NCBI GenBank assembly: GCA_949152475.1
Contig: OX424567.1
Coordinates: forward strand, 18,749,402-18,813,401
Length of the DNA: 64,000 nucleotides
Direction: 5' to 3'
Source of the DNA: Terebella lapidaria
Lineage: Eukaryota; Annelida; Polychaeta; Terebellida; Terebellidae
Positions 13,955-43,620 of this stretch are shown one piece after another (the stretch's first letter is position 1; each line of letters opens with the position of its first letter). The notes under the pieces were generated by a model. It saw only the letters and a program-made list of their open reading frames with translations. It did no database searches and was not told the origin of the DNA. Both the position numbers and the translations under genes were made by a program.

Positions 13955-13964
13955 TTTGCGATTG

Positions 13965-14280
13965 TGGCACCGCTAAATGTAACACCTACCCCAAATGTAG
14001 TAAGGTCCCCTATATGTCATAACACAGGAACCCCAAATGTCATAAGGTCCCCTAAATGTCATAAAGGTCCCCTAAACGTGTGTGGCACCGTTAAATGTAA
14101 CACCTACCCCAAATGTAGTAAGGTCCCCTATATGTCAGAACACAGGAACCCCAAATGGGACAAAGTCCCCTAAATGTCATAAAGGTCCCCTAAATGTGAC
14201 ACATCACCATACCCTAAATGTCATAAATTTGAGGCCCCCTAAATGTAACATACATGCCTACCCTAAATGTCATAACACAA
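13965..14280. repeat. Terminal minisatellite (CCCCTAAATGTCATAAGGT units), left copy
   Basis: Irregular 18-20-base units built on CCCCNAATGT(C/A)(A/G)TAAGGT, with a roughly 120-base block repeated (13965-14085 and 14086-14200). The inverted counterpart is at 18690-18885. The open frames here ('NVTPTPNVVRSPIC') are translations of the repeat. Confidence 0.8.
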
Positions 14281-15229
14281 TTGAAAACATTCTGAACCAT
14301 AAATCAAACATACTCGACCATTTGTCCATTGCTTTTTATTTGAAGGATGTTAAAAATATGCTCTTCGGATACAATACGACTATGTATTTGACTGATAAAA
14401 TATTGACAGCATGATTAAAATAGTGAGTAATCAAATAAATACTTTATCCGACTGGTTCAAAGCAACTAAATTATCATTGAACACAACTAAAACTACTATT
14501 TATACTACTTAGCAATACATGCGGGTGTTGAGGCCCCTGTAATTATTTATAATAGCATTATTATCCTATCCATTACCTCTATAACACTACACGGGTAACC
14601 CCAACAGCCCACTCAAAGCAACTGCCTTCGAATGTATGCAATTTTTATTTTCAAAACTAAATTTCATTGAAAATCGTCTAATACAATACAACAAAACATG
14701 TACACATTAGTTTTGACGATTACAGTCCATCGGAGTTGTCTTTACATTCGTTTTACCACACATTTTATGCCAGTTTTGTGTAGAAACAAACAAAGTGTAT
14801 CCATCGAACCCGAATGTAAACAAATGCTCAGATTGCCCTTAAAAGTCCACATCGAGTACATTTTCCAGTTTTTATCTGTATATATGGTGTAGTTATGAGA
14901 AAATAATCAGTGATATACGGTGGTGTGCGTGGAATTGTCAGTCCATCTTGCACATTTATGCTTTGTTTACATCTGCATGTGATGGATGCAGTTCCTGTAT
15001 TTACGTATGAACCGCCTGTTCAAATGAGGAAAATTGCGCAAAAGACTGGGTTGCAGACAATGCATTTGATGTGAGTACGTCTCATTGAGTTAATTTCACA
15101 TGTTTATTGTGAAATATAGTTTTCAAAATATATTGCCTATTTTTGAAGATAGTTGCTTTAAAATAGGCGCTCCCCCATGGAGAAACCTCCCCATGGGGAA
15201 GAATAAAGAATGACTCATCCAGGGCTGTG

Positions 15230-16770
15230 ATATGTCTATTTCTATATGTCCACAATTGATTGATAAGCTGTAAAGTCAATAAAAAGCGAGATATTAGCCA
15301 TTTCGTTCACTGACCTTGAAAATGATGTCAAAGGTCAAATTCAATGTCATAGCAATATTCAGCATATATCATTTTCTATATGTTCATAATTGATTCCTAA
15401 GCTGTAAAGTCGATAATAAGCAAGATATTAGCTATTTTGTCCTGCGACCTTGAAAATGAGGTCAAATGTCAAGTTCAAGGTCATGACAATGTTCAAAATG
15501 TATCATTTTCTATATGTTCACAATTGATTGCTAAGCTGTAAAGTCGATAAAAACCGAGATATTAGTCATTTTGTCCTGTGATCCTGAAAATGAGGTCCAA
15601 GGTCAAATTCAATATCATGGCAATAATCTGCATATATCATTTCCTATATGTCCACAATTGATTCCTAAGCTGTAAAGTCAATAATAGGCAAGATATTAGC
15701 CATTTTGTGCTCTGACCTGGTAACTGAGGTCAGAGGTCAAATTCAAGGTCACGATAATATGCAGCATATTCAACGTCATCAGAATATTCAACATATATCA
15801 TGTCCTATATGTCTACAATTGATTCATAAGCTGTAAAGTCGATAATAAGCGCGATATTATACATTTGTGCTCTGACCTTGAAACCGAGGTCAGAGGTCAA
15901 ATTCAAGATCACGAGAATATTCAGCATATATCATTTCCTTTATGTCCACAATTGATCCCTAAGCTGTAAAATCGATAATAAGTGAGATATTAGCCATTTT
16001 GTTCTGTGACCTTAAAAATGAGGTCAAAGGTCAAATTCACGGTCATCAGAATATTTGGCATATATCATTTTCTATATGTCCATAATTGATTCCTAAGCTG
16101 TAAAGTCAATAATAAGTGATATATTAGCCATTTTGTCCTGTGACCTTGAAAATGAGGTCAAAGGCCAAATTCACGGTCATCAGAATATTCAGCATATATC
16201 ATTTCCTACATGTCCACAATTGATCCCTAATCTGTAAAATCGATAATAAGTGAGATATTAGCCATTTTGTCCTGTGACCTTGAAATTGAGGTCAAAGGTC
16301 AAATTCAAGATTATCGGAATATTCGGCATATATCATTTCCTATATGTCCACAATTGATTCCTAAGCTGTAAAGTCGATAATAAGCGAGATATTAGACATT
16401 TTGTGCTCTGACCTTGAAACCGAGGTCAAAGGTCAAATTCAAGGTCACGAGAATATTCAGCATATATCATATCATTCCTTTAAGTCCACAATTGATCCCT
16501 AAGCTGTAAAATCGATAATAAGTGAGATATTAGCCATTTTGTCATGTGACCTTGAAAATGAGGTCAAAGGTCAAGTTCAAGGTCATCAGAATTTTCGGCA
16601 TATATCATTTATTATATGTCCACAATTGATTCCTAAGCAGTAAAGTCGATAGTAAGCGAGATATTAGCCATTTTGTGCTCTGACATTGAAACCGAAGTCA
16701 GACGTCAACTTCAAGGTCACAAGAATATTTGGCATATATCATTTCCTATATGTCCACAATTGATTCCTAG
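15230..16770. repeat. ~135-bp satellite, 12 units, rich in AGGTCA half-sites
   Basis: The landmark 'TAAGCTGTAAAGTCGAT' or a close variant recurs at about 15264, 15398, 15533, 15667, 15825, 15959, 16096, 16231, 16363, 16498, 16636 and, diverged, 16769. One interval is longer by about 24 bases. Each unit holds 'TGACCTTGAAA', then 'GAGGTCAAAGGTCAAATTC', then 'AAGGTCA'. Perfect AGGTCANAGGTCA occurs at 15727, 15887, 16021, 16289, 16423 and 16561 in this block. Confidence 0.9.
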
Positions 16771-17800
16771 TCTCTAATCTCAATATTAAATGAGAGATTA
16801 GGCTTAATGTGTCCCATTATAAAGCATAGGAGAATTTAACATGGAAAGTCCCATTTGGGCTGTGTTTGGGCCCAAAATGGCCCACTTCGAGCGATTTAAG
16901 GGCAACGAAATTTATACATGTCACAGGAGTACATAAGAAGAGTGTTATGCATCAATAAGAAAACCAGTTACTGAACAGATTTTGAGAAAACGACCATCAA
17001 ATCCAAAACTGGCCATTTTTCGACTAAAATGGCCGCTCTGACCTTGAATCCGAGGTCCGAGGTAAAATTCAAGGTCACGAGAATATTCAGCATATATCAT
17101 TTCCTATATGTCCACAATTGATTCCTAGTCTCTAATCTCACTATTAAGTGAGATGTTGGGCTTAATGTGTCCCATTATAAAGCATAGGAGAATTTAACAC
17201 GGGAAAGTCCCAGTTGGGGTGAGTTTGGGCCCAAATGGCCCACTTCGAGCGATTCAAGGGCAACGAAATTTATACATGTCACAGGGGTACTGTAACATAT
17301 GAGGAGTGTTATGCATCAATAAGAAAAAAGTTACTGATAAGATTTTGAGAAAACGACCGTCAAAGTCCAAAATTGGCCATTTTTCGACGGAAACGGCCAC
17401 TCTGACCTTGAAACCGAGGTCAGAGGTCAAATTCAAGGTCACGAGAATATTCAACATATATCATTTCCTATATGTCCACAATTGATTCTTAGTCTCTAAT
17501 CTCAATTTTATGTGAGATATTAGGCTTAATGTGTCTCATTATAAAGTATAGGAGAATTTAACATGGAAAGTCCTATTTGGGCCGAGTTTGGGCCCAAAAT
17601 GGCCCACTTCGAGCGATTCAAGGGCAACAAAATTCATACATGTCACAAGGGTACATAGGAGGAGTGTTATGCATCAATAAGAAAAATAGTTACTGATAAG
17701 ATTTTGAGAAAATGACCGACAAAGTCCAATATTGGCCATTTTTCGACGAAAACGGCCGCCATTTTGAAAAAAAATGCGAAAATAAAAAAAATAAAAAATA
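16771..17800. repeat. ~360-bp long-unit extension of the satellite, three copies
   Basis: From 16769 each unit gains about 225 bases beginning 'TTAGGCTTAATGTGTCCCAT' and containing 'GGGCCCAAAATGGCCCACTT', 'GGGCAACGAAATTTATACAT' and 'GGCCATTTTTCGAC'. Copies start near 16769, 17128 and 17487; the last ends in an A-rich stretch at about 17770-17800. The extra block also occurs as single relics at 12090-12330 and 59560-59780. A seventh perfect AGGTCANAGGTCA lies at 17417. Confidence 0.85.
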
Positions 17801-18689
17801 CCTCCCTCTCGAAAGATTAAAGGCATGTCCGGTTAAAGCGGACATTTACTAGTCTAATTCCACAGGAAAACATTGGAAAACATACAAGATAGTGGACTTA
17901 TCGTCATTTCCAGGGAGTGTTTCAGCAGAAAGATACGATAATGTTTGGTCGAACATCACAAATATCATCTATCATTACCGATAAATAATTACAAAACAAT
18001 ACTCATCTAAGGACATACATCACAACTAATGCAAATAGACGACAGCACAAGTATAATGTTCATTATGATAAAAAAAATATGATCCATTAGCTCCGGTAAC
18101 CTAAAAACTGGAAAATGTACTCGATGTGGACTTTTAAGGGCAATCTGAGCATTTGTTTGTTTATAAACAAAACTGGCAAAAAAATGTGTGTTAAAACGGA
18201 TGTAAAGACAACTCAGACGGACTGGAATCGTCAAAATCAATGTGTACATGTTTTGTTGTATTGTATTAGACGATTTTCAATAAAATTTAGTTTTGAAAAT
18301 AAAAATTGCATACATTCGAAGGCAGTTGCTTTGAGTAGGCTGTTGGGGTCACCCGTGTAGTATATTATAGAGGTCATGTATTGGACAATAATGCTATTAT
18401 AAATAATTATAGGGGCATCAACACCCGCATGTATTGCTAAGTAGTATATAATTAGTTTCAGTTGTGTTCAATGATAACCTAGTTGCTTTGAACCAGTCGG
18501 ATGAGGTATTTAATTGATTACTCAGTATATTAGTCATACAGTCAATATTTTATCAGTCAAATATATATTCGTATTGTATCCGAAGAGCATATTTTTAACA
18601 TCCTTCAAATAAACAGCAATGGACAAATGGTTGACAAGTGGTCGAATATGTTTGATTTATGGTTCAGAATGTTTTCAATTGTGTTATGA

Positions 18690-18885
18690 CATTTAGGGTA
18701 GGCATGTATGTTACATTTAGGGGGCCTCAAATTTATGACATTTAGGGTATGATGATGTGTCGTATTTAGGGGACCTTTATGACATTTAGGGGACCTTATG
18801 GCATTTGGGGTTCCTGTGTTCTGACATATAGGGGACCTTACTACATTTGGGGTGGGTGTTACATTTACCGGTGCCACATGCGATC
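18690..18885. repeat. Terminal minisatellite, right inverted copy
   Basis: Reverse complement of the left terminal minisatellite (units of ACATTTAGGGGACCTTATG). It ends with 'GGTGCCACATGCGATCGC', mirroring 'GCGATTGTGGCACC' at the left end. Confidence 0.8.
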
Positions 18886-20837: not shown

Positions 20838-21773
20838 TGTAACGATTTTAGTCCGAAAATTGTGTTCGGCCAAGTTTTAATACCTGTTTGTTAATGCGGT
20901 TACATGATATTTTATGGTCGTTAAAAGCGTTTAAAATATAAACAAGTAGATAATGGCGAATATTATTTATTAAAAACTACAACTAAAATTAGACACTACA
21001 TGCAACATTGAAAACAGAAATACTACAAAAAAAAAATAACAATATAAACTGGGTGGGCGGGTGGGATAAAATGTGTGTGTAACCCGGCCGGGGCAGAGCA
21101 GAAAATGAACACACTGCAGGCCTGTGTGTGTGAGCCACGGGTGGAGCAATACATGGTTACTAAGGGGTACGACTCAAGAGACTGTACATATACATGACAG
21201 AGCAAAAGGGTAGAGTTGTAGGATAAACAATGAGAGTTATGCATATATAGTAAATATTTTAAATACTGTTTACATACAAACAATCACTTTAAATTGATTC
21301 TAAGTGTGTGTATATGATTATCAAAGTTCGGTTGTTTTTCAGCTGCTCCGGGTGCTCTTCGGCTGATATCAGACCTTGATGGTATACGCTATTACGTAAA
21401 GGTGCTTGGAAACGGATTTGCAACAATGCAGATTGTTACTAGGCGGTTACTGACTGGTTATCAATCAAAAAAAAAATTTCGGCCAAAAAGTCAGTTTTGA
21501 TTGGTTGGGGTAGGTCACGTGACACCTACCCCAAAAAGTATAAATACTGCCGACTCACAGGAGTCAGCGCCTTTTGACACTGGGACACCAACCAAAGCAC
21601 ATTGCGGTCCAGTCGAACTAAAATTGGCCGAAGAGCAGGCGAGCACCCAAAGATGTCATCATTAGATGAATTCTCAACTATTTCAACCAACTGTATGATT
21701 CGTCAATAAACCTTGAACTGTTGTTGAGTTATTGCTTGAGGCGGCCTAGCTGACTCAGTGTTTGGGTATAACA
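20838..21773 (+). repeat. 5' LTR of the Gypsy fossil
   Basis: Begins TGTAACGATTTTA and ends GGGTATAACA. It matches 36267-36845 apart from an insertion of about 358 bases at 20936-21293. It contains a TATAAATA box at 21539-21546 just after 'GTCACGTGACACC' and an AATAAA signal near 21705, the usual promoter and polyadenylation arrangement of an LTR. Confidence 0.85.
20936..21293. other. ~358-bp insertion inside the 5' LTR, flanked by TTTAAA
   Basis: The 3' LTR lacks this segment. TTTAAA occurs on both sides (20930-20935 and 21288-21293), consistent with a 6-base target duplication. The insert has a GC-rich middle ('GTAACCCGGCCGGGGC', about 21080) and AT-rich ends. No terminal inverted repeats or internal pol III boxes are obvious; the family is unknown. 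Confidence 0.6.
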
Positions 21774-22404
21774 AATGGAAGGACAACCGAAGTGAACTCA
21801 GAGAATTTACTGAAGTAGAGTCAAACGAAGTAATAAGAGAAAAGGACTGGATGACCAGTCGGGTTGAAATCAAAGCTGATAACGTCTGAGATAGCTGTGA
21901 ACCCAAGCTATCAACCGAACTTACAACGGAAGAAGAAGAGGTCGAGAGAATGAGCCGAACACCGAACTACATGATAGGTGATCCCTACTTCGGGAACACT
22001 AGCAGCTGCAGTCCCAAACACGCTACCACAAAGACGAACTGCAGCCGGAGCCTCAGAGCTCCCGGAAGTATCCCACCTGAGTCAACCGAGACGTCCTGCA
22101 GCCGGAGCACCAGAGTTTCCCAAAGCGCCCCTGCAGCTGAAGCTCCAGAGACAACCGAGATGGCCTGCAGCCGGAGCACCGGAGTCTCCCGAAGCGCCCC
22201 TGTAGCCGAATGCCTCGAGCTACCCCAAGACCGAGCAACAGCCACTTAACGACCGTCTCTAGAATAAGCAGGTGACCCGAGAAAAGACTGTAGGAGAGAA
22301 ACTCGGCTCCTAGAACTGTTACAAACGTATAATCAACCAGGCGAATAACTGACCAGGCTGGAGACAGGGAGCATCCGGATGAGCCCGAAGACCCAGACGA
22401 TCTA
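21774..22404 (+). other. Leader of the Gypsy fossil with short tandem repeats
   Basis: Untranslated-looking leader between the LTR and gag. 22030-22215 holds three imperfect copies of a 55-60-base unit with the phrase 'CTGCAGCCGGAGCACC' and 'AAGCGCCCCTG'. The same leader recurs at 36846-37345. No primer-binding site could be assigned with confidence. Confidence 0.6.
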
Positions 22405-24060: not shown

Positions 24061-24970
24061 GATTGGACCGGGTACGAGAAACTCCAGCAGCTGACCGAAG
24101 AGACAGAGATGTGTGTGTGCCGGCCGAAAGCCGAAAACGAGTGACCGAACTGCTCTACCAGAACCGAAGAGTCTTCAGCGATGATTCCGGCATCCTGGGC
24201 CAAACGAAAGTAGTTCAACACGAAATCCTCACCGGGAACCACCGTCCCATCAAGTAACAAGCCAGACGACTCCCTTCCCATCATCGAAAGCTGGTAGAAG
24301 ATGTGGTACAAGACATGAAAGACCAGGGAGTCAGTGAAAAGATGGTACAACAAGCTTTCGCGTGGATTACCGACGACTCAATGCAGTAACAGAAAAAGAT
24401 GCCTATCCCTTACCCCGAACCGATGACACTATAGCGGCCTGCTCTGAGGCGAAGTGGTTTTCAACCCTGGACCTGACTAGTGGCTACTGGCAGGTGGGGA
24501 TGGACGAAGATGCCCGAAGGAAGTCGGCCTTCTGTGTTCGCGTTGGGCTCTACAGGTTCAAAGTAATGAGTTTCGATCTGTGCAATATGCCGGGGACATT
24601 TGAAAGACTTATGTAGAAAGTCCTCGGTGGACTCTCCTGGAAGACCTGCCTGACATACTTGGACGATGTGATCATCTATAGCCGGACCCTGGAGGACCAC
24701 GTCAGAAACATTCAAGAAGTATTTCTAAAACTGGAGGAGGTGGGCCTGAAGCTGAAACCTTCCAAGTGCAAATTTTTCCAACACGAAGTAGCTTTCCTGG
24801 GTCACATTGTGGGTACAGACGGGATACACACAGACCCTGTCGAGACCGAAGCTGTAAGAAGATGGTCGGCCCCTGAGAACGTGACCGACTTAAGGAATTT
24901 CCTGGGCCTGTGTTCCTACTACCGAAAATTTGTGCCGAAGTTTTCAGAGATAGCCAGTCCTCTACACTGA
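24061..24970 (+). pseudogene. Reverse transcriptase region (Gypsy fossil)
   Basis: RT motifs in order: 'VDYRRLNAVTEKDAYPLPR' region (24362), 'WFSTLDLTSGYWQVGMDEDA' (motif A), 'KSAFCVRVGLYRFKVMSF' (motif B side), 'TYLDDVIIYSRTLEDH' (YLDD catalytic motif, about 24655), 'KPSKCKFFQHEVAFLGHIVG' and 'RNFLGLCSYYRKFVPKFSEI'. This is the classical Ty3/Gypsy RT. Fossil. Confidence 0.9.
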
Positions 24971-25029
24971 CTGACCGAAAAAGGAGCACCTTTCCTGTGG
25001 CGGGCCGAACAGGAGCAAGCTTTCACCGA

Positions 25030-25525
25030 AACTGAAGAATCGGCTGGTAATGGCACCAATCCTAGGGTATCCCTGGGAAGAGGGACGTTACATCCTCGAC
25101 ACTGATGCCAGCAACACCGGGTTAGGAGCGGTCTTGTCTCAAAAAACAAGATGGACAGGAATGGGTCCTCACCTACCTCAGCCGAAGCCTGACCAAAGAA
25201 GAGAGGTGGTATTGCGTCACCCGGAAGAAGTTCTAGCTGTCGTCTTTGCCACCCGAAAGAATAAGCAGTACCTTTTAGGCCGAAAGTTCCTGCTGCACAC
25301 CGATCACAGGAGCCTGCTATGGCTAATGAACTTCAAAGAACCTCAGGGACAGGTCACCCGATGGATCAAGCTTTTGAGTGAGTACGACTTCGAGATCCAA
25401 CACCGACCTGGTCGAGTCCACAACAATGCTGATGCACTGTCGAGATCTGCTTGTAGCCAATGCGGGAAGAGTGACTGGAAGCAGGCCAAGATTGATGCCT
25501 GGGACTTCCGGGAGATTAAATGACA
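25030..25525 (+). pseudogene. RNase H region (Gypsy fossil)
   Basis: 'YILDTDASNTGLGAVLSQ' is followed by 'EVLAVVFATRKNKQYLLGRK', 'FLLHTDHRSLLWLMNF' and 'IQHRPGRVHNNADALSR', the complete signature order of a Gypsy RNase H, which degrades the RNA strand of the RNA-DNA hybrid. It follows the RT directly. Fossil. Confidence 0.9.
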
Positions 25526-27060
25526 AGCCAAGGGATCCCGTAGAAGCAATCCAAGAAAGGGGGAAGCTACTGGGCCGAAGTCACCCGAAAACCCTCTCCC
25601 AAAGAAAGCCGTCAAACCCCAACCGAACAAGACCGAAAGGGCATCAGGGGAACCTAAACCGAAAAGTGGTCGACCGAAGAGCCGAAGTAAGACAACCGAA
25701 ACTGAGGTTGAGCCAGAGCTGGAAAGATCAAGTTGGGGACAAGAGTACCAACTCACTGACTACAGAAAGCAGAGCCTTAGTATCCAGCAGTCAGCACCTT
25801 CATGACCGACAAACTGGTCCAAGCTAAGATCGACTACCCAAGCCTGGGTGCGGAAGAAAAGGTCCTGTACGGCATGAGAAAGAACTGGTGACCGACAGCG
25901 GCGTGATTTATAGATGATGGAGGACCACGGAGGGGTCTGAATGCCTGCAGCTCATCACCCCTCAACCGATCTGCCGGGAGGTTTTCAACCGGACACATCA
26001 AATTCGGCTAGGCGGACACTTGGGTGCAAGAAGAATGTCAGCAAGCATCCGAATACGATACTTCTGGCCGGGAATGCTGAGAGACATCAAGCAGTGGATC
26101 CTGACCTGTGACGATTGTGTTTCCCCAAACACACAGAACCTCAAGAAGTCGCCCATGCAGAAGAACTGGGTAGGATCACCAATGGAGCGAGTAGCCATGG
26201 ACATCATGGGGCCTTTGCCAAAATCAACCCTGGGCAACCGATACACCCTGATGGTGGTAGACTACTTTACCAAGTGGACTGAAGCCTACACAATCCCGAA
26301 TCAAGAGGCAGCCACGGTAGCCGAAGCCTTCACTGGCCAGTTCGTGTCCCGGTACGCCATCCCGAGGGAGGTACATACTGATCAAGGGCACAACTTCGAG
26401 TCTGAAGTTCTGAAAGAAGTTGCCAAATCCTGGGAATCCACAGGACCAGACCTACAGCTTTCCGGCCCCAATCTGACGGATTCATAGAGAGATTCAACCG
26501 AACATTTCAAAAGATGGTGAGCCTGTATATGAGCGATCGACAGACCGATTGGGATCGAATTGTCCCATTGGTTATGGCAGCATACCGAAGCACACCTCAA
26601 GAGACGACCGGGCAGAGCCCCAGCCTGCTGATGATGGGCAGAGAGGTCAACACCTCTGCGGACCTCCTGATAGCACAACCACACCGGGAGACTGGTCAAG
26701 AGGTGACCGAATACGGCAGTCAACTACGAGAGCATATGGAAAAGATCTACTCTGTAGTACAGAAAAATCTACGTGAGCATATGGAAAAGATCTACTCTGA
26801 AGTACAGAAAAGATCGAGCCGAGCGATGTAGCAAAAGAAAAGAAACTAAGCCGTGGCAAGGTCAACAACCAGTACAACCCGGGAGAGCTAGTGTGGATGG
26901 CGATCAAGACCCAAAAGAAGGGAAATGCCCCGAAGTTACAAAGAAAATGGAGCGGGCCGAGACTGGTGGTGGAAAAGTTCACAGGTGTTACCTACGTGGT
27001 AGCAGAGAGCAAATCCAAATAGAAAGTCGTCCATTTTGACCTGCTGAAGCTATACAGAGG
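25526..27060 (+). pseudogene. Integrase region with C-terminal domain (Gypsy fossil)
   Basis: After a variable linker (25526-25860), an HHCC-like zinc region ('HIKFGWADTW' surroundings and 'CDDCVSPNT') leads to the catalytic core: 'VAMDIMGPLPKSTLGNRYTL', 'VVDYFTKWTEAY' and 'EVHTDQGHNFES'. 26860-27050 gives the GPY/F-like end ('LQRKWSGPRLVVEKFTGVTY', 'KVVHFDLLKLYRGVK'). It would insert the cDNA. I see no chromodomain. A 50-base phrase is duplicated near 26730-26810 ('EHMEKIYS' twice). Fossil. Confidence 0.85.
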
Positions 27061-27266: not shown

Positions 27267-27690
27267 AAAACACCTGTTTGCCCAATTAAGGTGTGGTATC
27301 TTACCTATTGCAATTGAAACTGGTCGATTCAAAAATATAAGAGACACTGATACTGGCAACTTTGAAAACAGACTGTTGAAGAAAGACTATGTGAAATTTG
27401 TAATAATGGTAATATCGAGGTTGAAGAACATTTATTATTATATTGTACACAATATGCATCAGAGAGACATTTTCTTCTTTCAAACAATGAGATTTGCTCT
27501 CACTGCTTCTACCTGCCAAGCATGCGGTAAAGACACATTTGTACAGGCTCCTCAGGATTCCATGATTATGTGTTACTAAATGCAATAAGGAGACATAAAA
27601 ACTCCTGGAATGGGATATTGTCATAAAGATCATCGTAATGCATTCTAAAATACTATTTGTGTTGGATATATCATACAAAACTAGGATTTA
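27267..27690 (+). pseudogene. LINE ORF2 tail fragment, plus strand (downstream piece)
   Basis: Begins inside a coding phrase 'LFAQLRCGILPIAIETGRFK' and, after a frame change, reads 'ERLCEICNNGNIEVEEHLLL' and 'YCTQYASERHFLL', the C-x2-C ... H ... C zinc-like tail of many LINE ORF2s. The phrase expected just before it, ending 'KYKRSL', is found at 34278-34437 but on the minus strand. The two pieces are therefore neighbouring parts of one LINE tail, now about 7 kb apart and in opposite orientation, on either side of LINE-E. Confidence 0.75.
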
Positions 27691-27895
27691 TATCAGTGTT
27701 GAATCTACACCAGTGTGAAATATCGGAGCCATTTTGCATGCATGAGTGCTCATGAACCAGCATATGTATCGGACCATTCTAACTCTGTTGTTTCCTGCAC
27801 ACGCCGTCACGCACCTGTGACTGACCTGAATTACGTCGACATTGAAGAACAACAATAACAACACGATCTCAACAGCCGTACCCACCACACCAGTC

Positions 27896-29128
27896 ATGTC
27901 AACAAAAACCAGATCCGCCCAAAGTAAGTCAAACGTTGATGAAATGCCTGACTGGGCTGTGAGACTAAAAGATGATATTATTGAAAGTCTGGGAAGCAAA
28001 CTTGATTCTATGATAGAAAAAGCAGTGCATGATGTCAAAGAGGAATTCCACAAGGAAATTGAAAAAAGCATCAGTTTCGCCACTCAGTCATTAGCAACAG
28101 AAGTCCAGGATCTGAATGTGAAAATATCCCGTCTTGAAAATGACTCTCAGCAACAAGATAAAACAATGAAGGCCCTTAGGCAGATGTGTAGGGAAAACAA
28201 AGAAAGAACGATACGACTAGAAGCTTATGGTATGAGAGAAGCCCTTGTTTTCTCTGGATTTGAGGAGAAAGAGAATGAAACGGAGGATGACATCAGAACT
28301 GCCTTGTACAAGTTATTCGAGAATGACCTGGATATAGAAGATGCTAGTAGCATGCGGATCTCCAGGTGTCACAGGCTTCGATCTACTCGAGACGGTCAAC
28401 CTAGAGATATAGTTGCCAGATTCCTGTATTATCCAGATAGACAAAAGGTAATGAGTGCTGCCAAAAAACTTGAAGGTAGAGAAGATCCCATCTTTATCAA
28501 TCCACACTTCCCCAGGGAAATACAGCAACGACGTAATCTGCTCAGGCCAATCGTCAAACTGGCCAAATCCAAACACATCAAAGCCTTCCTAGTACAAGAC
28601 ACTCTACATGTCAAAGACAAGGTATACACAGTTGAAAATCTGGACGAGTTGCCATTCCGATGGGAGTCCGTGTCAACGAAAATGACAAATGATCATGTAT
28701 TCTTCTTCGGCGGCCTATCTCCGTTCAGTAATTTCAACGTCATCAACAGCTCCTTTGTCGTAAATGGAGTGACATTTTCTTGTTCAGAGCAAATGTTTCA
28801 ATACCGCAAGGCCACTCATGTCGGTGACGACGTAGCTGCTACAAATGTGCTTCTCGAAACGGATCCTGTTGCCATGAAACGGATAGGCGATGCTCTCCCG
28901 AAGAAACCCTCTTGGAATGACTTGGCTCCAGTGGTGATGAAAGAAGCGTTGATCGCGAAGTTCAGTCAGAATCCTTCCTTGAAAAAGGTGATCAAGGAGA
29001 CTGGGCAACGTCAATCCGTCGAGTGTAACCGAAGTGATAAACTGTGGGGGATAGGACTGCCTCTACACCATGACGCCATCAGTGACGAGAGCAAGTGGAA
29101 AGGCAAGAACCTCCTCGGCAACCATTAG
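27896..29128 (+). CDS. LINE-E ORF1: coiled coil + RRM-like domain + NADAR (YbiA/DUF1768) domain
   Basis: 410 codons from the first ATG (27896); the longer frame from 27842 uses TTG and is unlikely. Residues 25-105 are a heptad-rich coiled coil, 112-255 an L1 ORF1-like RRM plus C-terminal domain ('REALVFSGFEEKENETEDDI', 'ISRCHRL', 'PIFINPHFPREIQQRR'), and 266-410 a NADAR domain: 'FFGGLSPFSNF', 'FSCSEQMFQYRKA' with the conserved Glu, 'VVMKEALIAKFSQN', 'KETG', 'ECNRSDKLWGIGL' (D-x-x-W-G) and 'WKGKNLLGN'. NADAR proteins are N-glycosidases acting on riboflavin intermediates or, as reported, on ADP-ribosylated guanine. A stop at 29126 cuts the last helix: the frame one base off continues 'LGEVRTIINSDS', the usual NADAR ending, so one indel probably removed about 13 residues. 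The domain calls are by motif; the biological role is inference. Confidence 0.85.
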   Translation: MSTKTRSAQSKSNVDEMPDWAVRLKDDIIESLGSKLDSMIEKAVHDVKEEFHKEIEKSISFATQSLATEVQDLNVKISRLENDSQQQDKTMKALRQMCRENKERTIRLEAYGMREALVFSGFEEKENETEDDIRTALYKLFENDLDIEDASSMRISRCHRLRSTRDGQPRDIVARFLYYPDRQKVMSAAKKLEGREDPIFINPHFPREIQQRRNLLRPIVKLAKSKHIKAFLVQDTLHVKDKVYTVENLDELPFRWESVSTKMTNDHVFFFGGLSPFSNFNVINSSFVVNGVTFSCSEQMFQYRKATHVGDDVAATNVLLETDPVAMKRIGDALPKKPSWNDLAPVVMKEALIAKFSQNPSLKKVIKETGQRQSVECNRSDKLWGIGLPLHHDAISDESKWKGKNLLGNH

Positions 29129-29395
29129 GTGAAGTGCGCACTATCATAAACAGTGACTCCTAATCACTATCCTTGACACTGAGCGTACAGAACATGAACT
29201 TGAGCATCACATATTCACTCTTGGTAGATAGATAACGAACATCCACTTGTACAATATGAGTTCTAGGATAAGTTTATGTAATGTTTCATTTCCTACACCC
29301 AGTATTTTTTTATGTGTTATGTGTTTCCTTTTCTGAACATACCCTATATATTATGACTGTGTATGCAATGATGTATGTGTATATGTGTATGTGTG

Positions 29396-29438
29396 TATAT
29401 AATATATATATATATATGTATATATATATATGTATGTG

Positions 29439-29516
<78 letters not shown>
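29396..29516. repeat. (TA)n microsatellite
   Basis: About 120 bases of nearly pure TA with a few TG interruptions at the left, between the two ORFs of LINE-E. The 79-codon frame over it is a repeat translation. Confidence 0.95.
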
Positions 29517-29518
<2 letters not shown>

Positions 29519-30080
29519 GACTTAATATTCGAAGGCTGAGCTAATGAAGTTAACTGATTGTATGATACTACATGTATGCATACTGCATGCAGTGGTATAC
29601 AAGGTTAATATATCATGTTCGAATCTGAGTGTATCTGATTAAAGGTATATAGTTTTCGAGATCATACCTGATTGCTCCTCATTTATATTGTTGCAATCAA
29701 TGATTTTTTGGCATGTGATCATGAAAAATTTCAGGTTCGCCCGTTTGTAATGATCTTCTTGATGAAAATGATTATATTGACGTACATGTAAATTTATTAA
29801 CTACAATATGGAATTAGTGTATCGTATCTCAACTGTTATGTATATGTATGTGACCTGGTAATAACACTGAATATAACTCTAACATGCACCTGTCTCGTGT
29901 TTGTTTGTGTTGTTGTGGTTTCTTGTGGCCGCCGTTTTCACACATTTAACATACGAACAAGTACATCCGTGAGTACAAACAAATCAATGAAGATCGGATA
30001 TTCATCCTGTATACTGAAAGGAGTAACTCAAGCAGGAGTAGTTCTGCGCTCTAATCCATCATAACCACGGTGTGAAAATG

Positions 30081-30262
30081 CTGTGAGTTGACTATAACCG
30101 TCTTCTTTATGGCTCACTGAGTAATGCCTGGGATAACTGAACCTATTAGTGGACAGCAATGTGTGAGATTGTTGTGAGTTGACTATAACCATCTTCTTTA
30201 TGGCTCACTACGTAATGCCTTGGATAGCTGAACCTATTAGTGGACAGCGATGTAGAAATCCA
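30081..30262. repeat. 92-bp tandem duplication between the LINE-E ORFs
   Basis: Two copies (starting about 30081 and 30173) of a unit beginning 'TGTGAGTTGACTATAACC' and ending near 'CCTATTAGTGGACAGC', differing at about five positions. Tandem units are common in LINE 5' untranslated regions, so this may mark the 5' region of the ORF2-bearing element. Confidence 0.85.
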
Positions 30263-30771
30263 TATTCGATGTCCATGACCAGAACCCATTGATAACAAGC
30301 AATGTGTCTTGTGCTCATTGCAGCATTAGTTTATACGTATGCATACACGTTATGGTTACGATGTAATCCCAAGTTTATATATATATATATATGGTCATAT
30401 CGTGTTGACGAAATATTATTTATATGCCCAGATACATGTAATTCGTAAATTTTCAATCAACAGAATATTAGTTTCTATTCTGCACTTAACTAACCTCTAA
30501 CAGATCTACTGACCATGAGATGCACGTTTCATTGTTTCCTCGGTAAACATCTCAGCTCATTATAAGAATGAATCTTGAGGAGCCTCGCGCTCTGAAATGC
30601 ATCACTACTTGTGCTTACTCATGTACCTAGTGTCGGCCGAACGAGACCGATCACATATCAACAGGATTGCATTTCAAGTCTTTACCCTTTTGTTCAAATA
30701 TAACTATCATCTAAATATGCATGGTGCTCGATGCAATATATTCTATATTTATTTGCTGATGATCATCAAGT

Positions 30772-33700
30772 ATGGATAGTACACCATTGGACCACATCAA
30801 GACAACCGATGAATACAACTTATCTGGCCTATATGAAGGCACGGAGGATGATCATTTTGTGATGACCGAATTCCAGCAAGTAAGTGAAAATTGTCGATAT
30901 TATGAACCAAATCAATTCAAAAATTCAATTGATGATCTAAAAGGTGATATGACATGTCTTCATCTGAACTGCCGTGGTTTGTCATCAAATTGGGAATCAT
31001 TCAAGGAGTTTCTGTATAATTGTACAGGGGATGATTATGGGTTTGACATTATCGGTTTAAGCGAAATTTATGATACCGCTAGAGATAAGCGCTTGACTTT
31101 GAATGGGTACCATAAACTATTGGTGAGGAATCGGGATGATAATTTTCGGGGCGGGGTCGGATTATACATAAAAAATATATATGACTTTTCTGTACGAGAC
31201 GATCTAAGTGTTTTTCTACCAGGTGTTTTCGAATCGCTGTTTGTTGAAATTCGTAGTGAGCACAGCAAAAATCATGTTGTGGGCGTAATCTATAGGCCGA
31301 ACACCCCTCCTCTAGCGGACTTGGATATTTTTTCCCATACTCTTCTATCTATAATGAATATAATCAATACTGATAACAGTGTTTGTACTATATTGGGTGA
31401 TATGAATGTTGACTTGTTGAAGGCAAACAGTAATTATTTTACTGGGGAATATATCGATAGCATCTTCTCGAGCGGCTTTATGCCTTTAATCACCAGACCG
31501 ACTAGATTGGGGCCTACATCAGCGACTCTAATCGATCATATCTATTGTAATAATATTAAACCCAATTCGAAATCTGGAATCATAATAAATGATGTTGCCG
31601 ATCACTTCGCTATTTTCAGTGCAATCCCAAATAAATGCAAACGGAAACCGTCTAGGCATACTTATAGGAGAGTAATAACGCATAACTCACTGGATAATTT
31701 TCGTGACCGCCTTAGACAGATAGATTTTAGTCATATTCTTGAAATTGAATGCGCAAATAGTGCATATAACGAATTTATTAAAATCTACCAATCCACGTTT
31801 TTTGAAGTATGTCCGCTTAAACAGATAAAAGCAAATAAACGATATGTGAAACGTGAAGTCTGGTTCACTAAGGGCTTGTTAGTTTCGTCCCGCAAGAGGA
31901 ATACTTTACTTATGAATAAAATCAAACATCCATCTGAAAATAATGCGAACAAGTTTCAAGCATACAACTCAACTTACAACAAATTAAAAAGACTTGCGAA
32001 GAAGAAATATTATATGGAAATTCTTGAGGAAAATAAATTCAACATGAAAAAATCTTGGGACATAATAAACCAGGCATTATGCCGCCAAAAGTTACATCAA
32101 GAATTCAAAGTGAATAATACAATTGTTACTGATAAACTTGAGATAGCTAATAACTTCAATTCTTTTTTCTCCAAAATTGGTCAAGAAACAAAGGATAAAG
32201 TTCCTCTAGTTAATGAACATTACTCGGATTATTTACCAAATCCTAAATTACATAGCATGTTCATAGAGCCAGTTTCTTCCTCAACCGTCCTTCTGACAGC
32301 GAGTAAATTGAAAAATAAATCCAGCTATGGGCATGATGAAATTTCAACTAAACTATTAAAAGAAACAATCGAGATAATCTGTGAACCCATTACCCATATA
32401 ATAAACCAATCCCTTCAGTCAGGGGTTTTTCCGGACCAAATGAAATTAGCTAGAGTTATCCCGATATTCAAGTCTTCTGACCCCTCTTGTTTCAATAATT
32501 ATAGACCCGTTAGCCTTCTGCCGTCAATGTCTAAACTCCTTGAAAAAATAATGTATACTAAATTAGCGTCTTATCTTGAATCGCACAGTATTCTGTTTAA
32601 GCACCAGTACGGATTTCGTCCTAAACATTCTACCATTCATCCAATCCTTCATTTGTTAAATAATTGCGCTGAAGCCACTAATTGTCCCCATCCAGCATAT
32701 ACACTAGGTATATTCTGCGATTTATCTAAAGCATTCGATGTTATAAATCATGATATTTTATTTAACAAGTTATACAATTATGGAATTAGGGGGGTAGTTC
32801 TTCGTTGGTTTCAAAGTTACCTTTCTGGACGTGAACAATTTGTATATTTCGACGGTGAAAATTCTAACAAAACTAATGTTTCTTGCGGTGTACCTCAGGG
32901 GTCAATCTTGGGTCCCCTCCTTTATCTATTATATGTAAACGACATCAGTAATGCATGTAGCGATAATATTCTTTCTTTTGCGGATGATACGACGGTATAT
33001 TCTTCAAACAGAGATATCCAAACTCTATTCAGAGATGGTAATAATAATGTCAATAGTTTATATAGATGGTTCTGTGCTAATCAACTTTCTTTGAACGCCA
33101 ATAAAACAAAATACATCGTATTGCACCCTTCTGGAAGACGCGTAGATATGTCACGTTATGATATTGCTATAGCGGGTGTTAAATTGAATAGAATAGGGGA
33201 TCATAATGACGAAAAATGTACCAAGTTTTGGGGGTTATATTTCGATGAACATTTAACCTGGAAATATCATATTAATCACATGAATAAAAAAATATCACAT
33301 GCTTTATTCGCTATTAAACAAGTCAGTAATTTCTTGCCTACTAATACTTTGAAAACATTATATTATACTTTAATCCATCCACATATTACCTATGGGATAA
33401 TTGCATGGGGTAACGCTCAACCATCCGTTTTACGAAGGACAACACTTCTCCAGAAACGTGCAATCAGAATAATAAACAAAGCCTCTTATAATAGCAATAC
33501 GGAACCATTGTTCAAATCTACAAATATTTTGACGGTTGGGGATATATTTCTGTACCAATGTGCTTTATTTATGTTTGACTTTGTTAATGGGGGACTACCA
33601 CGAACGTTTGATGGTATATTTCAATATAATATTGAAATCCAACAATACCATGTCACTCGACAAGCCGAGCTGCTTCATGTACCTAGGATTTTTAACAAAT

Positions 33701-33876
33701 TTTCACGTAGTATGCCATTCTTTCAACTTCCGATAATATGGAACAAACTTTTGCGTGAGATAAATACTAATATATCACGCCCCGTATTTAAATTTCAATT
33801 TCGAAAACATCTAAATGACAAATACTCGAATATCGTACGGTGTAGCAACCCAAATTGTCGTGATTGTCGAACATAA
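30772..33876 (+). CDS. LINE-E ORF2: AP endonuclease + reverse transcriptase, full length
   Basis: 1034 uninterrupted codons. Endonuclease motifs: 'LHLNCRG' (Asn near 66), 'DIIGLSEIY' (Glu near 98), 'VGVIYRPN', 'ILGDMNVD' (GDxN near 209), 'LIDHIYCN' and 'ADHFAIF' (near 281). RT motifs: 'NNYRPVSLLPSMSKLLEKIM', 'GIFCDLSKAFDVINHDILF' (A), 'SCGVPQGSILGPLLYLLYVN' (B, near 706), 'LSFADDTTVYSS' (FADD, near 737) and 'NANKTKYIVLHPSG'. The end is Cys-rich ('RCSNPNCRDC'). It nicks target DNA and copies element RNA there. Motif style fits the Jockey superfamily (CR1/L2/Crack-like). It lacks the 2A-like leader of LINE-C and LINE-D. All catalytic residues I can check are present, so this copy may be functional. 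The short frames on both strands within it are shadows. Confidence 0.95.
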   Translation: MDSTPLDHIKTTDEYNLSGLYEGTEDDHFVMTEFQQVSENCRYYEPNQFKNSIDDLKGDMTCLHLNCRGLSSNWESFKEFLYNCTGDDYGFDIIGLSEIYDTARDKRLTLNGYHKLLVRNRDDNFRGGVGLYIKNIYDFSVRDDLSVFLPGVFESLFVEIRSEHSKNHVVGVIYRPNTPPLADLDIFSHTLLSIMNIINTDNSVCTILGDMNVDLLKANSNYFTGEYIDSIFSSGFMPLITRPTRLGPTSATLIDHIYCNNIKPNSKSGIIINDVADHFAIFSAIPNKCKRKPSRHTYRRVITHNSLDNFRDRLRQIDFSHILEIECANSAYNEFIKIYQSTFFEVCPLKQIKANKRYVKREVWFTKGLLVSSRKRNTLLMNKIKHPSENNANKFQAYNSTYNKLKRLAKKKYYMEILEENKFNMKKSWDIINQALCRQKLHQEFKVNNTIVTDKLEIANNFNSFFSKIGQETKDKVPLVNEHYSDYLPNPKLHSMFIEPVSSSTVLLTASKLKNKSSYGHDEISTKLLKETIEIICEPITHIINQSLQSGVFPDQMKLARVIPIFKSSDPSCFNNYRPVSLLPSMSKLLEKIMYTKLASYLESHSILFKHQYGFRPKHSTIHPILHLLNNCAEATNCPHPAYTLGIFCDLSKAFDVINHDILFNKLYNYGIRGVVLRWFQSYLSGREQFVYFDGENSNKTNVSCGVPQGSILGPLLYLLYVNDISNACSDNILSFADDTTVYSSNRDIQTLFRDGNNNVNSLYRWFCANQLSLNANKTKYIVLHPSGRRVDMSRYDIAIAGVKLNRIGDHNDEKCTKFWGLYFDEHLTWKYHINHMNKKISHALFAIKQVSNFLPTNTLKTLYYTLIHPHITYGIIAWGNAQPSVLRRTTLLQKRAIRIINKASYNSNTEPLFKSTNILTVGDIFLYQCALFMFDFVNGGLPRTFDGIFQYNIEIQQYHVTRQAELLHVPRIFNKFSRSMPFFQLPIIWNKLLREINTNISRPVFKFQFRKHLNDKYSNIVRCSNPNCRDCRT

Positions 33877-34277
33877 AAAAAAAAATATATATACAAATAG
33901 TAAACTGGATGGTACCAAGAACCATTGGTTCGCCGTTTGCATTCATATGCAATCTGTGTTATTGAATCGGTCTGTCAAATGATGCTATTTCTGTTTTCTT
34001 TTGCTAAGATTTTTTATGCATTTAATATAGTCTCCAGGTTGCATCGAGCACCATGCTGTTATGTTTTTTTCTGTTATAGTTTCCTTCATAAACAATATTT
34101 CACTCATAGGGCTTGTTGTAAGACAGCCAGTAGGCTATACATGCCCTCCTCTAATCATATATTATACGTTATGTGCATCATATGAAACTATTTCTTTGAA
34201 TATTCGTTGTCAGTTCCATATGTACTATATGTATTTATCTATCATTATAATGTATTTGATTTGAGGGAAATAAACTC
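33877..34277 (+). other. 3' untranslated region of LINE-E
   Basis: Starts with an A11 run after the stop and continues AT-rich to 'GGAAATAAACTCTACAACAG', where the antisense LINE-tail piece begins. It contains TTGCATCGAGCACCATGC (34037-34054), the exact inverse of an 18-base phrase upstream of ORF2 (30719-30736). No long poly(A) or microsatellite tail closes the element. Confidence 0.55.
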
Positions 34278-34437
34278 TACAACAGGGATCTCTTATATTT
34301 TGTTATTTTCTTAACAACATAGTCTTCTGCACAGAAATCTGTTTTAAATTGTACATATGTTCTCAACTTTGGTTTGTAGTTTAACACATTTATCCATTCC
34401 TCACACATAACAGTCATACATTTCTCTTCTACAAGCA
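34278..34437 (-). pseudogene. LINE ORF2 tail fragment, minus strand (upstream piece)
   Basis: The minus strand reads 'CMTVMCEEWINVLNYKPKLR', 'TYVQFKTDFCAED' and 'YVVKKITKYKRSLL', the region that directly precedes the 'LFAQLRCG' phrase in such LINE tails; that phrase is at 27267 on the plus strand. The breakpoint on both sides falls in CCTGTT. The Gypsy fossil resumes just to the right. Confidence 0.75.
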
Positions 34438-36266: not shown

Positions 36267-36845
36267 TGAAACAATTTTAGGCTGAAAATTGTGTTCGGCC
36301 AAGTTTTAATACCTGTTCGTATTATGTAATGATATATGTGGCTACATGATGTTTTATGGTCGTTAAAAGCTTTTTTAAGTGTGTATATATGATTATCAAA
36401 GTTCAGGTATTTTTCGGCTGCATCGAGTGCTCTTCGGCTGACATCAGACCTTGATGGTCAAAATACGCGATAACGTAAAGGTGCTTGGAAACGGATTTGC
36501 AACAATGCAGATTGTTACATGGCGGTTACTGCTTGGTTATCAATCATAAAAAATTTTTGGTCAGAAAAGTCAGTTTTGATTGGTTGGGGTAGGTCACATG
36601 ACACCCACCCCGAAAAAGTATAAATACTGACACTTTTTGACAATTTTGACACTGGGACACCAACCAGAGCACATCGCAGTCCAGCCAATTTAGTCAAATT
36701 GGCCGAAGAGCAGGAGCACCCAAAAATGTCATCACTAGATGAATTCTCAACTATTTCCAACTGTATGATTCGTCAATAAACTTTGAACTGTTGCTGAGAG
36801 TTATTCCTTGAGTCGGTCTAGCCAACTCCGTGTTCGGATATAACA
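36267..36845 (+). repeat. 3' LTR of the Gypsy fossil
   Basis: 579 bases, matching the 5' LTR along its length, with TATAAATA at 36619-36626 and an AATAAA near 36775. It lacks the ~358-base insertion of the 5' LTR. It ends GGATATAACA. Confidence 0.85.
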
Positions 36846-37345
36846 AATGGAAGGACAGCCGAAGTGAACTTAGAGAATTTACAGAAGTAGAGTCAACCGA
36901 AGTAATAAAAGAAAAGGACTGGAAGACCAGTCAGGTTGAAGTCAAAACTAATAACGTCTAAGCTAATCTCGTAATAATCTCATAACGTCTGAGATAGCTG
37001 TGAACCCAAGCTCTCAACCGAACTCACAACCGAAGAAGAAGAGGTCGAGAGAAGGAGCCGAACACCGAATTACATGATAGGTGATCCCTACTTCGGGAAC
37101 ATTAGCAGCTGCAGTCCCGAACACGCTACCACCGAGAGGGCCTGCAGCCGGAGCATTAGAGCTCCCCGAAGTATCCCACCTGAGTCAACCGAGACTTCCT
37201 GCAACCGGAGCACCGGAGTTTCCAGAAGCGCCCTTGCAGCCTAAGCTCCAGAGACAACCGAGACGGCCTGCAGCCGGATCACCCGAGTCTCCCGAAGTGC
37301 CACTGCAGCCGAAGTCCCGGAGCTACCCGAAGTATAATGCAGTAT
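36846..37345 (+). repeat. Second, partial leader after the 3' LTR
   Basis: Follows the leader at 21774-22240 closely ('AATGGAAGGACAGCCGAAG', 'GGTCGAGAGAAGGAGCCGAA', then the CTGCAGCCGGAGCACC repeats) and then stops at about 37345. An LTR followed again by internal sequence implies a tandem or recombined pair of copies rather than one simple insertion. Confidence 0.8.
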
Positions 37346-43019: not shown

Positions 43020-43620
43020 ATACATTAAATATTAGTCTCTGGTCAAACTCAAGGTCATCAAAGTATTCAAGATACATAATTCCTTATATATGCACACTTG
43101 ATTCCTATGCTGAAACGTCGGTATTAAGCAAAATATTAGCCATGTTGTGCTGTGACCTTGAAAATGAGTTCAAATGTCAAATTCAAGGTCATGACAATAT
43201 CAAGCATATATCATTTTCCTATATGTGCACAATTGATACCTAAGCGGTACACAGTCGATAATAAGCGAAATATTAGCCATTTTGTGATCTATCTTCAAAA
43301 ATAGGGTCGAATGTCAAATTCAAGGGGTCATCAGAATATTCAGGGTATATAATTTTCTGTATGTCCACAATTGGCTCCCACGCTATAAAGTCGATAAGAA
43401 GCAAGCTATTGGCTATTTTGTCCCGTGTGCTTGAGAATGAGATCAAAGGTCGAATTCTATATGTCCAAAATTGACTCCTTAGCTGTAGAGTCAATAAGAA
43501 GCGAGATATTAACCATTTCGTCCTGTAACCTAGAAAATGAGGTCAAATGTCAAATATTCAGTATATATCATTTCCATTATGTTCACAATTGATTTCTAAG
43601 CTGTAAAATCGGTAATAATG
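43020..43620. repeat. Degenerate copies of the AGGTCA satellite
   Basis: About four diverged units with 'TGTGACCTTGAAAATGAG', 'CAAATTCAAGGTCATGACAA', 'TATATGTGCACAATTGAT' and 'ATTAGCCATTTTGT', in the same unit order as the array at 15230-16770. A further partial unit is at 44230-44335. Confidence 0.8.

What the first reader, a model, noticed from the sequence alone, without database searches (positions are those of the whole stretch)
27896..29128. LINE ORF1 protein fused to a NADAR (YbiA/DUF1768) N-glycosidase domain
One open frame joins a coiled coil and L1-ORF1-like RRM to a near-complete NADAR domain ('SPFSNF', 'CSEQMFQ', 'MKEALIAKF', D-x-x-W-G, 'GKNLLG'). NADAR enzymes cleave N-glycosidic bonds, and members have been reported to reverse ADP-ribosylation of guanine. 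A retrotransposon RNA chaperone carrying such an eraser could shield its RNA or cDNA from host ADP-ribosylation. This would parallel the capture of an esterase domain by ORF1 of some CR1 elements. Architecture is seen directly; the defence-evasion role is inference. I cannot tell without a search whether it has been described.
Basis: partly seen in the sequence, partly recalled or inferred. Interest (0 to 1): 0.9.

Follow-up and report, generated by a model that had tools for sequence, protein, structure and literature searches.

The report
Jumping gene with ADP-ribose eraser domain
A large group of jumping genes in this animal-like genome carries an enzyme domain whose relatives strip ADP-ribose from guanine in RNA and DNA, and copies have kept its active site while spreading and swapping parts, which suggests that the enzyme protects or prepares the jumping gene's own genetic material.

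Summary
Window 27896-29128 encodes a 410-aa LINE ORF1: coiled coil, L1-type RRM/CTD (profile match to L1 ORF1p, E 8e-15) and a NADAR domain (Pfam E 2.8e-30). It is not a one-locus accident: at least 238 places in this genome carry all or part of the domain. Of 25 loci read over 8-15 kb, 23 have a LINE ORF2, or part of one, downstream on the same strand. Two copies on different contigs share 7,068 bp at 99.99% identity including both ORFs. Active-site Glu, Lys and Glu are invariant in 16 of 16 representative copies; NADAR dN/dS is 0.13-0.18 in the four between-family pairs computable. The ORF1 type accompanies two very different ORF2s, CR1/L2/Jockey-like (window) and L1/Tx1-like; ORF1 and ORF2 trees conflict (AU p 0.001-0.005). 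A 2025 paper (PMC12477816) already notes, in a short passage, NADAR in oyster Tx1 ORF1s. Its presence with another ORF2 type, exchange and purifying selection I did not find in print. Function (erasing guanine ADP-ribosylation from element RNA/cDNA) is inferred, not shown.

The parts
27506..34280 (+). LINE element (extent shared with copies elsewhere in the genome); 3' end ...AATAAACTCTAC, no clear target-site duplication; 5' end may be truncated
   Evidence: identity to L009/L011 begins at 27506/27541 and ends at 34280
27896..29128 (+). ORF1, 410 aa: coiled coil + L1-type RRM/CTD + NADAR
28091..28582 (+). L1 ORF1p-like stretch (residues 66-229): coiled coil end, RRM and part of the CTD
   Evidence: E 0.024 single sequence; profile E 8.4e-15 to 2ykp
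28685..29122 (+). NADAR domain (residues 264-409; Pfam 274-409)
   Evidence: E 2.8e-30; E 1.6e-31 to 8bau
28787..28789 (+). Glu298, aligned with catalytic E88 of E. coli C7 NADAR
   Evidence: mapping by alignment; a two-residue offset of the PDB chain numbering is inferred
28808..28810 (+). Lys305, aligned with K95 of E. coli C7 / K50 of P. nicotianae NADAR
   Evidence: same mapping
29021..29023 (+). Glu376, taken as the glutamate of the last strand that marks the YbiA subfamily
   Evidence: same mapping
29129..30771 (+). long non-coding spacer between ORF1 and ORF2 (TA microsatellite 29396-29515; 91-bp tandem duplication 30070-30253)
   Evidence: 1454-2486 nt in the 13 elements (11 families) measured
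30772..33876 (+). ORF2, 1034 aa: AP-endonuclease + reverse transcriptase, CR1/L2/Jockey-like
31036..31581 (+). Exo_endo_phos (AP endonuclease) domain of ORF2
   Evidence: E 5e-06
32494..33153 (+). RVT_1 reverse transcriptase domain of ORF2
   Evidence: E 1.1e-33

Best explanation
The window holds a copy of a family of autonomous non-LTR retrotransposons (LINEs) whose ORF1 protein is an L1-type RNA-binding protein with a C-terminal YbiA-type NADAR enzyme. Shown: the architecture, its many copies, joint movement with ORF2, a conserved active site, purifying selection between families. Inferred: the ORF1 part coats the element RNA in cis, as L1 ORF1p does (recalled), and thereby holds the NADAR enzyme on that RNA and on the nascent cDNA, where it hydrolyses the N-glycosidic bond between ADP-ribose and guanine. 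That removes adducts put there by host (or stress) ADP-ribosyltransferases that would block reverse transcription or translation. The RNA-binding/NADAR module has been exchanged between ORF2 lineages, so it seems to work independently of the reverse transcriptase it accompanies.
For: Fusion; 30 of 30 members of the ORF1 alignment match NADAR (they were chosen as relatives of the whole protein). Repeat family: 102 of 102 scored ORF1 matches (of 1164 candidates), 88 of 102 without an in-frame stop in the matched stretch, some matches partial; 150 of 150 scored NADAR matches over the curated cut-off (of 973 candidates), 144 without stop; 238 places with all or part of NADAR, on contigs C1-C17, C273 and C307. 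Linkage: 23 of 25 loci read have ORF2 or part of it downstream on the same strand (the loci were the window, the 20 best further rows and 4 picked by me, not a random sample). From coordinates, all 10 co-locations with the window-type ORF2 (10 of 44 rows) are same-strand downstream at 0.9-2.2 kb; for the L1/Tx1-type ORF2 9 of 50 rows (8 places) are same-strand downstream within 6 kb and 1 is opposite; 0.04-0.05 same-strand downstream expected by chance for each. Mobility: L026 (C8) and L027 (C9) share 7,068 bp at 99.986%, with different 70-nt flanks and both ORFs open. Function kept: equivalents of E298, K305, K328, W340, E376, D381, W384 invariant in 16 of 16; NADAR dN/dS 0.13-0.18 in 4 between-family pairs (3 different family comparisons, dS 1.1-2.4, so rough) against 0.84-0.89 for the decayed copy L010. 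No NADAR-less version seen in this genome: 116 of 150 scored RRM matches adjoin a listed NADAR; of the other 34, 14 were read, of which 10 carry NADAR whole or broken and 4 are cut or decayed at or before it (L011, L033, L034, L041); 20 were not read. Biochemistry from papers (passages): NADARs are the only hydrolase family found to reverse guanosine-base ADP-ribosylation of RNA (PMC11833690) and act on DNA (PMC11543638, PMC11125620); six edible clams have guanine-specific DNA ADP-ribosylating activity (PMC11209040); positive-strand RNA viruses including bivalve picornaviruses carry NADAR (PMC9503650).
Against: No activity was measured and the structure job did not finish. Two arginines that hold the pyrophosphate in P. 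nicotianae NADAR (R79, R93) are Asp and mostly Ala in the CR1-like copies, so the substrate may differ. Four relatives (P0005, P0006, P0009, P0010) have Leu and two more (P0007, P0011) Arg and Gly at the Lys305 position. E. coli YbiA is less active on guanosine-ADPr RNA than the DarT1-linked C7 NADAR, and NADARs outside DarT contexts protected less efficiently in E. coli. No Scabin-like transferase was found in this genome (controls silent). Some close pairs show no purifying signal: window-L009 NADAR 4 N and 0 S (includes the frameshifted tail), L021-L028 RRM 5 N and 1 S, L015-L018 NADAR 1.18 (includes the differing tail of L018). Three further between-family pairs were saturated.
Confidence: 0.5

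Rival explanations
1. The NADAR domain works on soluble molecules: ADP-ribose derivatives used as host immune signals, or riboflavin-pathway intermediates, and not on the element's nucleic acid.
For: PMC9503650 argues that many viral NADARs may prefer soluble ADPr derivatives and names riboflavin intermediates as substrates (passages); loss of the R79/R93 equivalents hints at a changed substrate.
Against: In the copies of this genome that were read, the domain is tethered to an RNA-binding ORF1, which makes a nucleic-acid substrate the simpler reading; the same paper reasons that NADARs of RNA viruses target macromolecular adducts.
Confidence: 0.2
2. NADAR processes the RNA intermediate itself, for example repairing RNA or removing caps, as a step of retrotransposition and not as counter-defence.
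For: PMC12477816 proposes processing of RNA intermediates for the Ectocarpus and oyster elements; NADAR is associated with RNA-repair systems. The cap idea is mine.
Against: [quoted passage not shown]
Confidence: 0.15
3. The domain is a non-catalytic ADP-ribose or RNA binding module.
For: 6 of 16 database relatives lack the catalytic lysine.
Against: Catalytic positions invariant in 16 of 16 representative copies of this genome and purifying selection between families.
Confidence: 0.1
4. Chance fusion at one locus, or a host gene next to a LINE.
For: None found.
Against: 238 places, joint mobility, same-strand spacing.
Confidence: 0.01

Closest known systems
Tx1-clade LINEs of Crassostrea gigas with NADAR in ORF1 (PMC12477816, short passage read; its supplementary figure not seen)
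   Same: LINE ORF1 with a YbiA-type NADAR; L031 and L032 of this genome have an L1/Tx1-like ORF2
   Different: The window element has a CR1/L2/Jockey-like ORF2 (L1 ORF2p score 49 bits against 239 for L032)
[quoted passage not shown]
   Same: Retrotransposon carrying NADAR
   Different: LTR element, domain in Pol, its blastp hits almost only bacterial
Esterase-type ORF1 of CR1 and L2 (PMC4120745, passages)
   Same: An enzyme domain in ORF1, thought to be shared between LINE lineages by transfer
   Different: Different enzyme; here RRM/CTD and enzyme sit in one ORF1
NADAR guanine-ADP-ribose hydrolases (E. coli C7, PDB 8bau, E. coli YbiA)
   Same: Same family by sequence; catalytic Glu, Lys and YbiA-type Glu
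   Different: Fused to an RNA-binding ORF1; pyrophosphate arginines replaced in CR1-like copies
NADAR in positive-strand RNA viruses incl. bivalve picornaviruses (PMC9503650, passages)
   Same: RNA-based parasite of animals with NADAR
   Different: Viral polyprotein together with an RNA-dependent RNA polymerase

Membership tests
NADAR superfamily (PF08719) | Profile match over the curated cut-off | tested here: met
   106 bits against 35.1
NADAR superfamily (PF08719) | Catalytic Glu and Lys (C7 E88, K95) | tested here: met
   Glu298 and Lys305; 16 of 16 representative copies; mapping by alignment
NADAR, YbiA subfamily | Glutamate in the last strand (Asp in BC4488 type, His in phage type) | tested here: met
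   Glu376 by alignment (definition); strand position not modelled
NADAR superfamily (PF08719) | Guanine-ADP-ribose hydrolase activity | not testable with these tools
   needs an enzyme assay
NADAR superfamily (PF08719) | YbiA fold | not tested
Type II (L1-type) LINE ORF1 | Coiled coil + RRM + CTD homologous to L1 ORF1p | tested here: met
   profile E 8.4e-15 to 2ykp, 3.9e-11 to 2ldy; Pfam Transposase_22 in 5 of 30 members only, not the window copy
Tx1/L1-group LINE | L1-like ORF2 | tested here: not met
   window ORF2 49 bits to L1 ORF2p, L032 ORF2 239 bits; branch between them 100/100
Jockey/CR1/L2-group LINE | APE + RT ORF2 with group-typical RT motifs and short-repeat 3' tail | tested here: inconclusive
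   APE and RT present, short-repeat tails in relatives; motif assignment is recalled, no labelled reference sequences were available
Autonomous LINE | ORF1 and ORF2 move together | tested here: met
   L026/L027 7,068 bp at 99.986%
Autonomous LINE | Target-site duplication | tested here: inconclusive
   14 copies examined: at best 6-9 nt matches near the ends, none in 2 (L011, L013)

The most novel reading that the evidence does not exclude
Guanine ADP-ribosylation of RNA or DNA is a standing anti-transposon defence in some invertebrates, and LINEs of two superfamilies in this genome share and trade an ORF1-borne eraser against it; much of the unexplained NADAR content of animal genomes is then transposon-encoded counter-defence.
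Probability: 0.33. Interest if true: 0.92.

Novelty: new variant of a known kind. Interest (0 to 1): 0.66.

Why it matters
The physiological role of NADARs in eukaryotes, animals included, is called unclear in the literature (PMC11125620, passages). This genome shows that NADAR domains can sit in hundreds of LINE copies, conserved at the active site and tied to an RNA-binding protein. That gives a concrete, testable setting for reversible ADP-ribosylation of nucleic acids in animals, predicts a host activity to look for, and warns that NADAR counts in invertebrate gene sets may reflect transposons.

Tried and rejected
Rejected: one-off fusion; host gene beside a LINE; the window element as Tx1. 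NADAR-less ORF1 of this type: two matches that stop at the NADAR border (L033, L034) proved to be decayed copies, and 10 of 11 further candidates carried NADAR. Outside this genome one database protein of unknown organism, P0141, has an RRM-like part and no NADAR; whether it is a LINE ORF1 was not tested. Origin of the domain: in a 151-row tree the 15 LINE NADARs sit with 11 of 16 proteins and 6 of 120, but the deep branch has support 49, so one acquisition is suggested, not shown. Viral contigs gave 19 NADAR loci, best 40% identity; not pursued. Rfam, at gathering thresholds, found nothing in the window or four related loci. The spacer is not conserved between families apart from short stretches. 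Scabin-like family: no match, controls silent. DarT (PF14487) and PARP (PF00644) searches did not complete. Organism not identified.

Full report
What is there. Window 27896-29128 encodes 410 residues. Residues 274-409 match NADAR (E 2.8e-30). A profile of 30 relatives matches the PDB NADAR 8bau (1.6e-31), YbiA 2b3w (1.5e-23) and, over the coiled coil, RRM and part of the CTD, L1 ORF1p (2ykp 8.4e-15; 2ldy 3.9e-11). With the single sequence the ORF1p match is weak (0.024). Downstream, 30772-33876 encodes a 1034-aa AP-endonuclease/reverse transcriptase. Identity with other copies runs from about 27506 to 34280.

It is a mobile family. The genome (762 Mb, 438 contigs, organism not given) holds 102 scored ORF1 matches (of 1164 candidates) and 150 scored NADAR matches (of 973). 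Merged with a further ORF1 search they make 238 places with all or part of the domain, on contigs C1-C17, C273 and C307, a lower bound. I read 25 loci over 8-15 kb: the window, the 20 best further rows and 4 others picked by me; 23 of 25 have ORF2, or in some only part of it, downstream on the same strand; L010 and L020 do not. From coordinates alone, 10 of 44 window-type ORF2 rows and 9 of 50 L1/Tx1-type rows (8 places) lie same-strand downstream of a listed ORF1/NADAR within 6 kb, one L1/Tx1-type row lies opposite, and 0.04-0.05 are expected by chance for each type; all these lists are capped, so missing partners mean nothing. L026 and L027, on contigs C8 and C9, share 7,068 bp at 99.986% with both ORFs open and different 70-nt flanks; L023/L024 share 7,450 bp at 98.6%. 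Target-site duplications were not clear.

Two kinds of ORF2. The window ORF2 scores 49 bits to L1 ORF2p; the RT-bearing frame of L032 scores 239. L031 and L032 carry L1/Tx1-like motifs, the window and the others CR1/L2/Jockey-like ones (clade motifs recalled, no labelled references at hand). The RT tree separates the two kinds 100/100 and shows within the second a group A of 10 rows with the window (99/100). ORF1 does not follow: ORF1 of L012/L013, whose RT is in group A, groups with L016 of the rest (97/94). AU tests reject group A as a clade in ORF1 (p 0.0013), the rest as a clade in ORF1 (p 0.0052), and L012/L013 with the rest in RT (p 0.0031). The groups were named after seeing the trees, which weakens these p values. 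ORF1 thus seems to have been exchanged, as described for other ORF1 types in PMC4120745 (passages).

Selection on the domain. In 16 representative copies (window and L009 near-identical, the rest from different families) the residues aligned with catalytic Glu and Lys, the YbiA-type Glu, and nearby Trp, Lys and Asp are invariant. Over 41 aligned rows (24 genome rows with the domain, some near-copies, 16 database proteins, 1 row cut before it) Glu298 is kept in 23 of 24 and 16 of 16, the exception being the decayed L010; Lys305 in 24 of 24 and 10 of 16; Glu376 in 23 of 24 and 15 of 16. The pyrophosphate arginines R79 and R93 are not kept (Asp and mostly Ala in the CR1-like copies). The mapping to published numbering rests on the alignment and an inferred two-residue offset of the PDB chain. 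NADAR dN/dS is 0.13-0.18 in four between-family pairs (three different family comparisons; dS 1.1-2.4); three more such pairs were saturated; L010 against window and L009 gives 0.89 and 0.84, while its RRM gives 0.27; a few close pairs carry more non-synonymous than synonymous changes.

NADAR looks constitutive here. An RRM-only search gave 150 scored matches of 567 candidates; 116 adjoin a listed NADAR. Of the other 34, I fetched 11, of which 10 carry NADAR (intact, frameshifted or cut) and 1 is cut by a deletion; 3 had been read before and are cut or decayed (L011, L033, L034); 20 were not read. One database protein, P0141, has the RRM part without NADAR.

Known or new. Searches with NADAR, DUF1768 or YbiA and transposon or LINE terms gave one paper on NADAR in transposons, PMC12477816 (passages read): NADAR in Ectocarpus Gypsy Pol and, by a Repbase query, in ORF1 of several C. 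gigas Tx1 LINEs. The library lacks most subscription papers and I could not query Repbase. In that sense the fusion is known; carriers with a CR1/L2-like ORF2, exchange between ORF2 types, amplification and selection are what I add.

Function. NADARs hydrolyse guanine-ADP-ribose in DNA (PMC11543638, PMC11125620) and are the only family found to do so on RNA guanosine (PMC11833690) (passages). Six edible clams have guanine-specific DNA ADP-ribosylating activity (PMC11209040, passages). An ORF1 that coats its own RNA is a natural way to aim such an eraser. That step is inference: no activity measured, no host transferase found in this genome (controls silent), no structure model (job unfinished).

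An oddity: in the 13 elements I measured (11 families, both ORF2 kinds) 1.45-2.49 kb lie between ORF1 and ORF2 without long frame or more than short stretches of shared sequence. Elements with visible deletions were left out of that count: L015, L028, L009 and L011 have less or none of it. How ORF2 is expressed is unexplained.

Noticed in passing
29129-30771 and spacers of 12 related elements: A 1.5-2.5 kb non-coding spacer between ORF1 and ORF2 in the 13 elements measured, whatever their ORF2 type (copies with deletions such as L015 and L028 left out); long for a LINE (recalled) and hardly conserved in sequence.
   Followed up: partly
24362-26487: Fragments of a Gypsy-like LTR retrotransposon (RT, RNase H, integrase) just upstream on the same strand.
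   Followed up: partly
13963-14874 and 18102-18878: Long inverted repeat of about 0.8-0.9 kb arms, pieces 92-100% complementary, about 3.2 kb between the inner ends; may be a fold-back type mobile element.
   Followed up: no
15239-16801, 16678-17757 and 43042-43618: Tandem arrays of a 134-bp unit and a related 364-bp unit, with inverted relatives near 59.7-60.1 kb.
   Followed up: no
21384-22210 and 36463-37314: Two direct copies about 15.1 kb apart, pieces 88-91% alike, containing a 69-bp tandem repeat.
   Followed up: no
P0005, P0006, P0009, P0010 (database proteins): ORF1-NADAR-like proteins from other sources with Leu in place of the catalytic lysine; possibly inactive or altered NADARs.
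   Followed up: no
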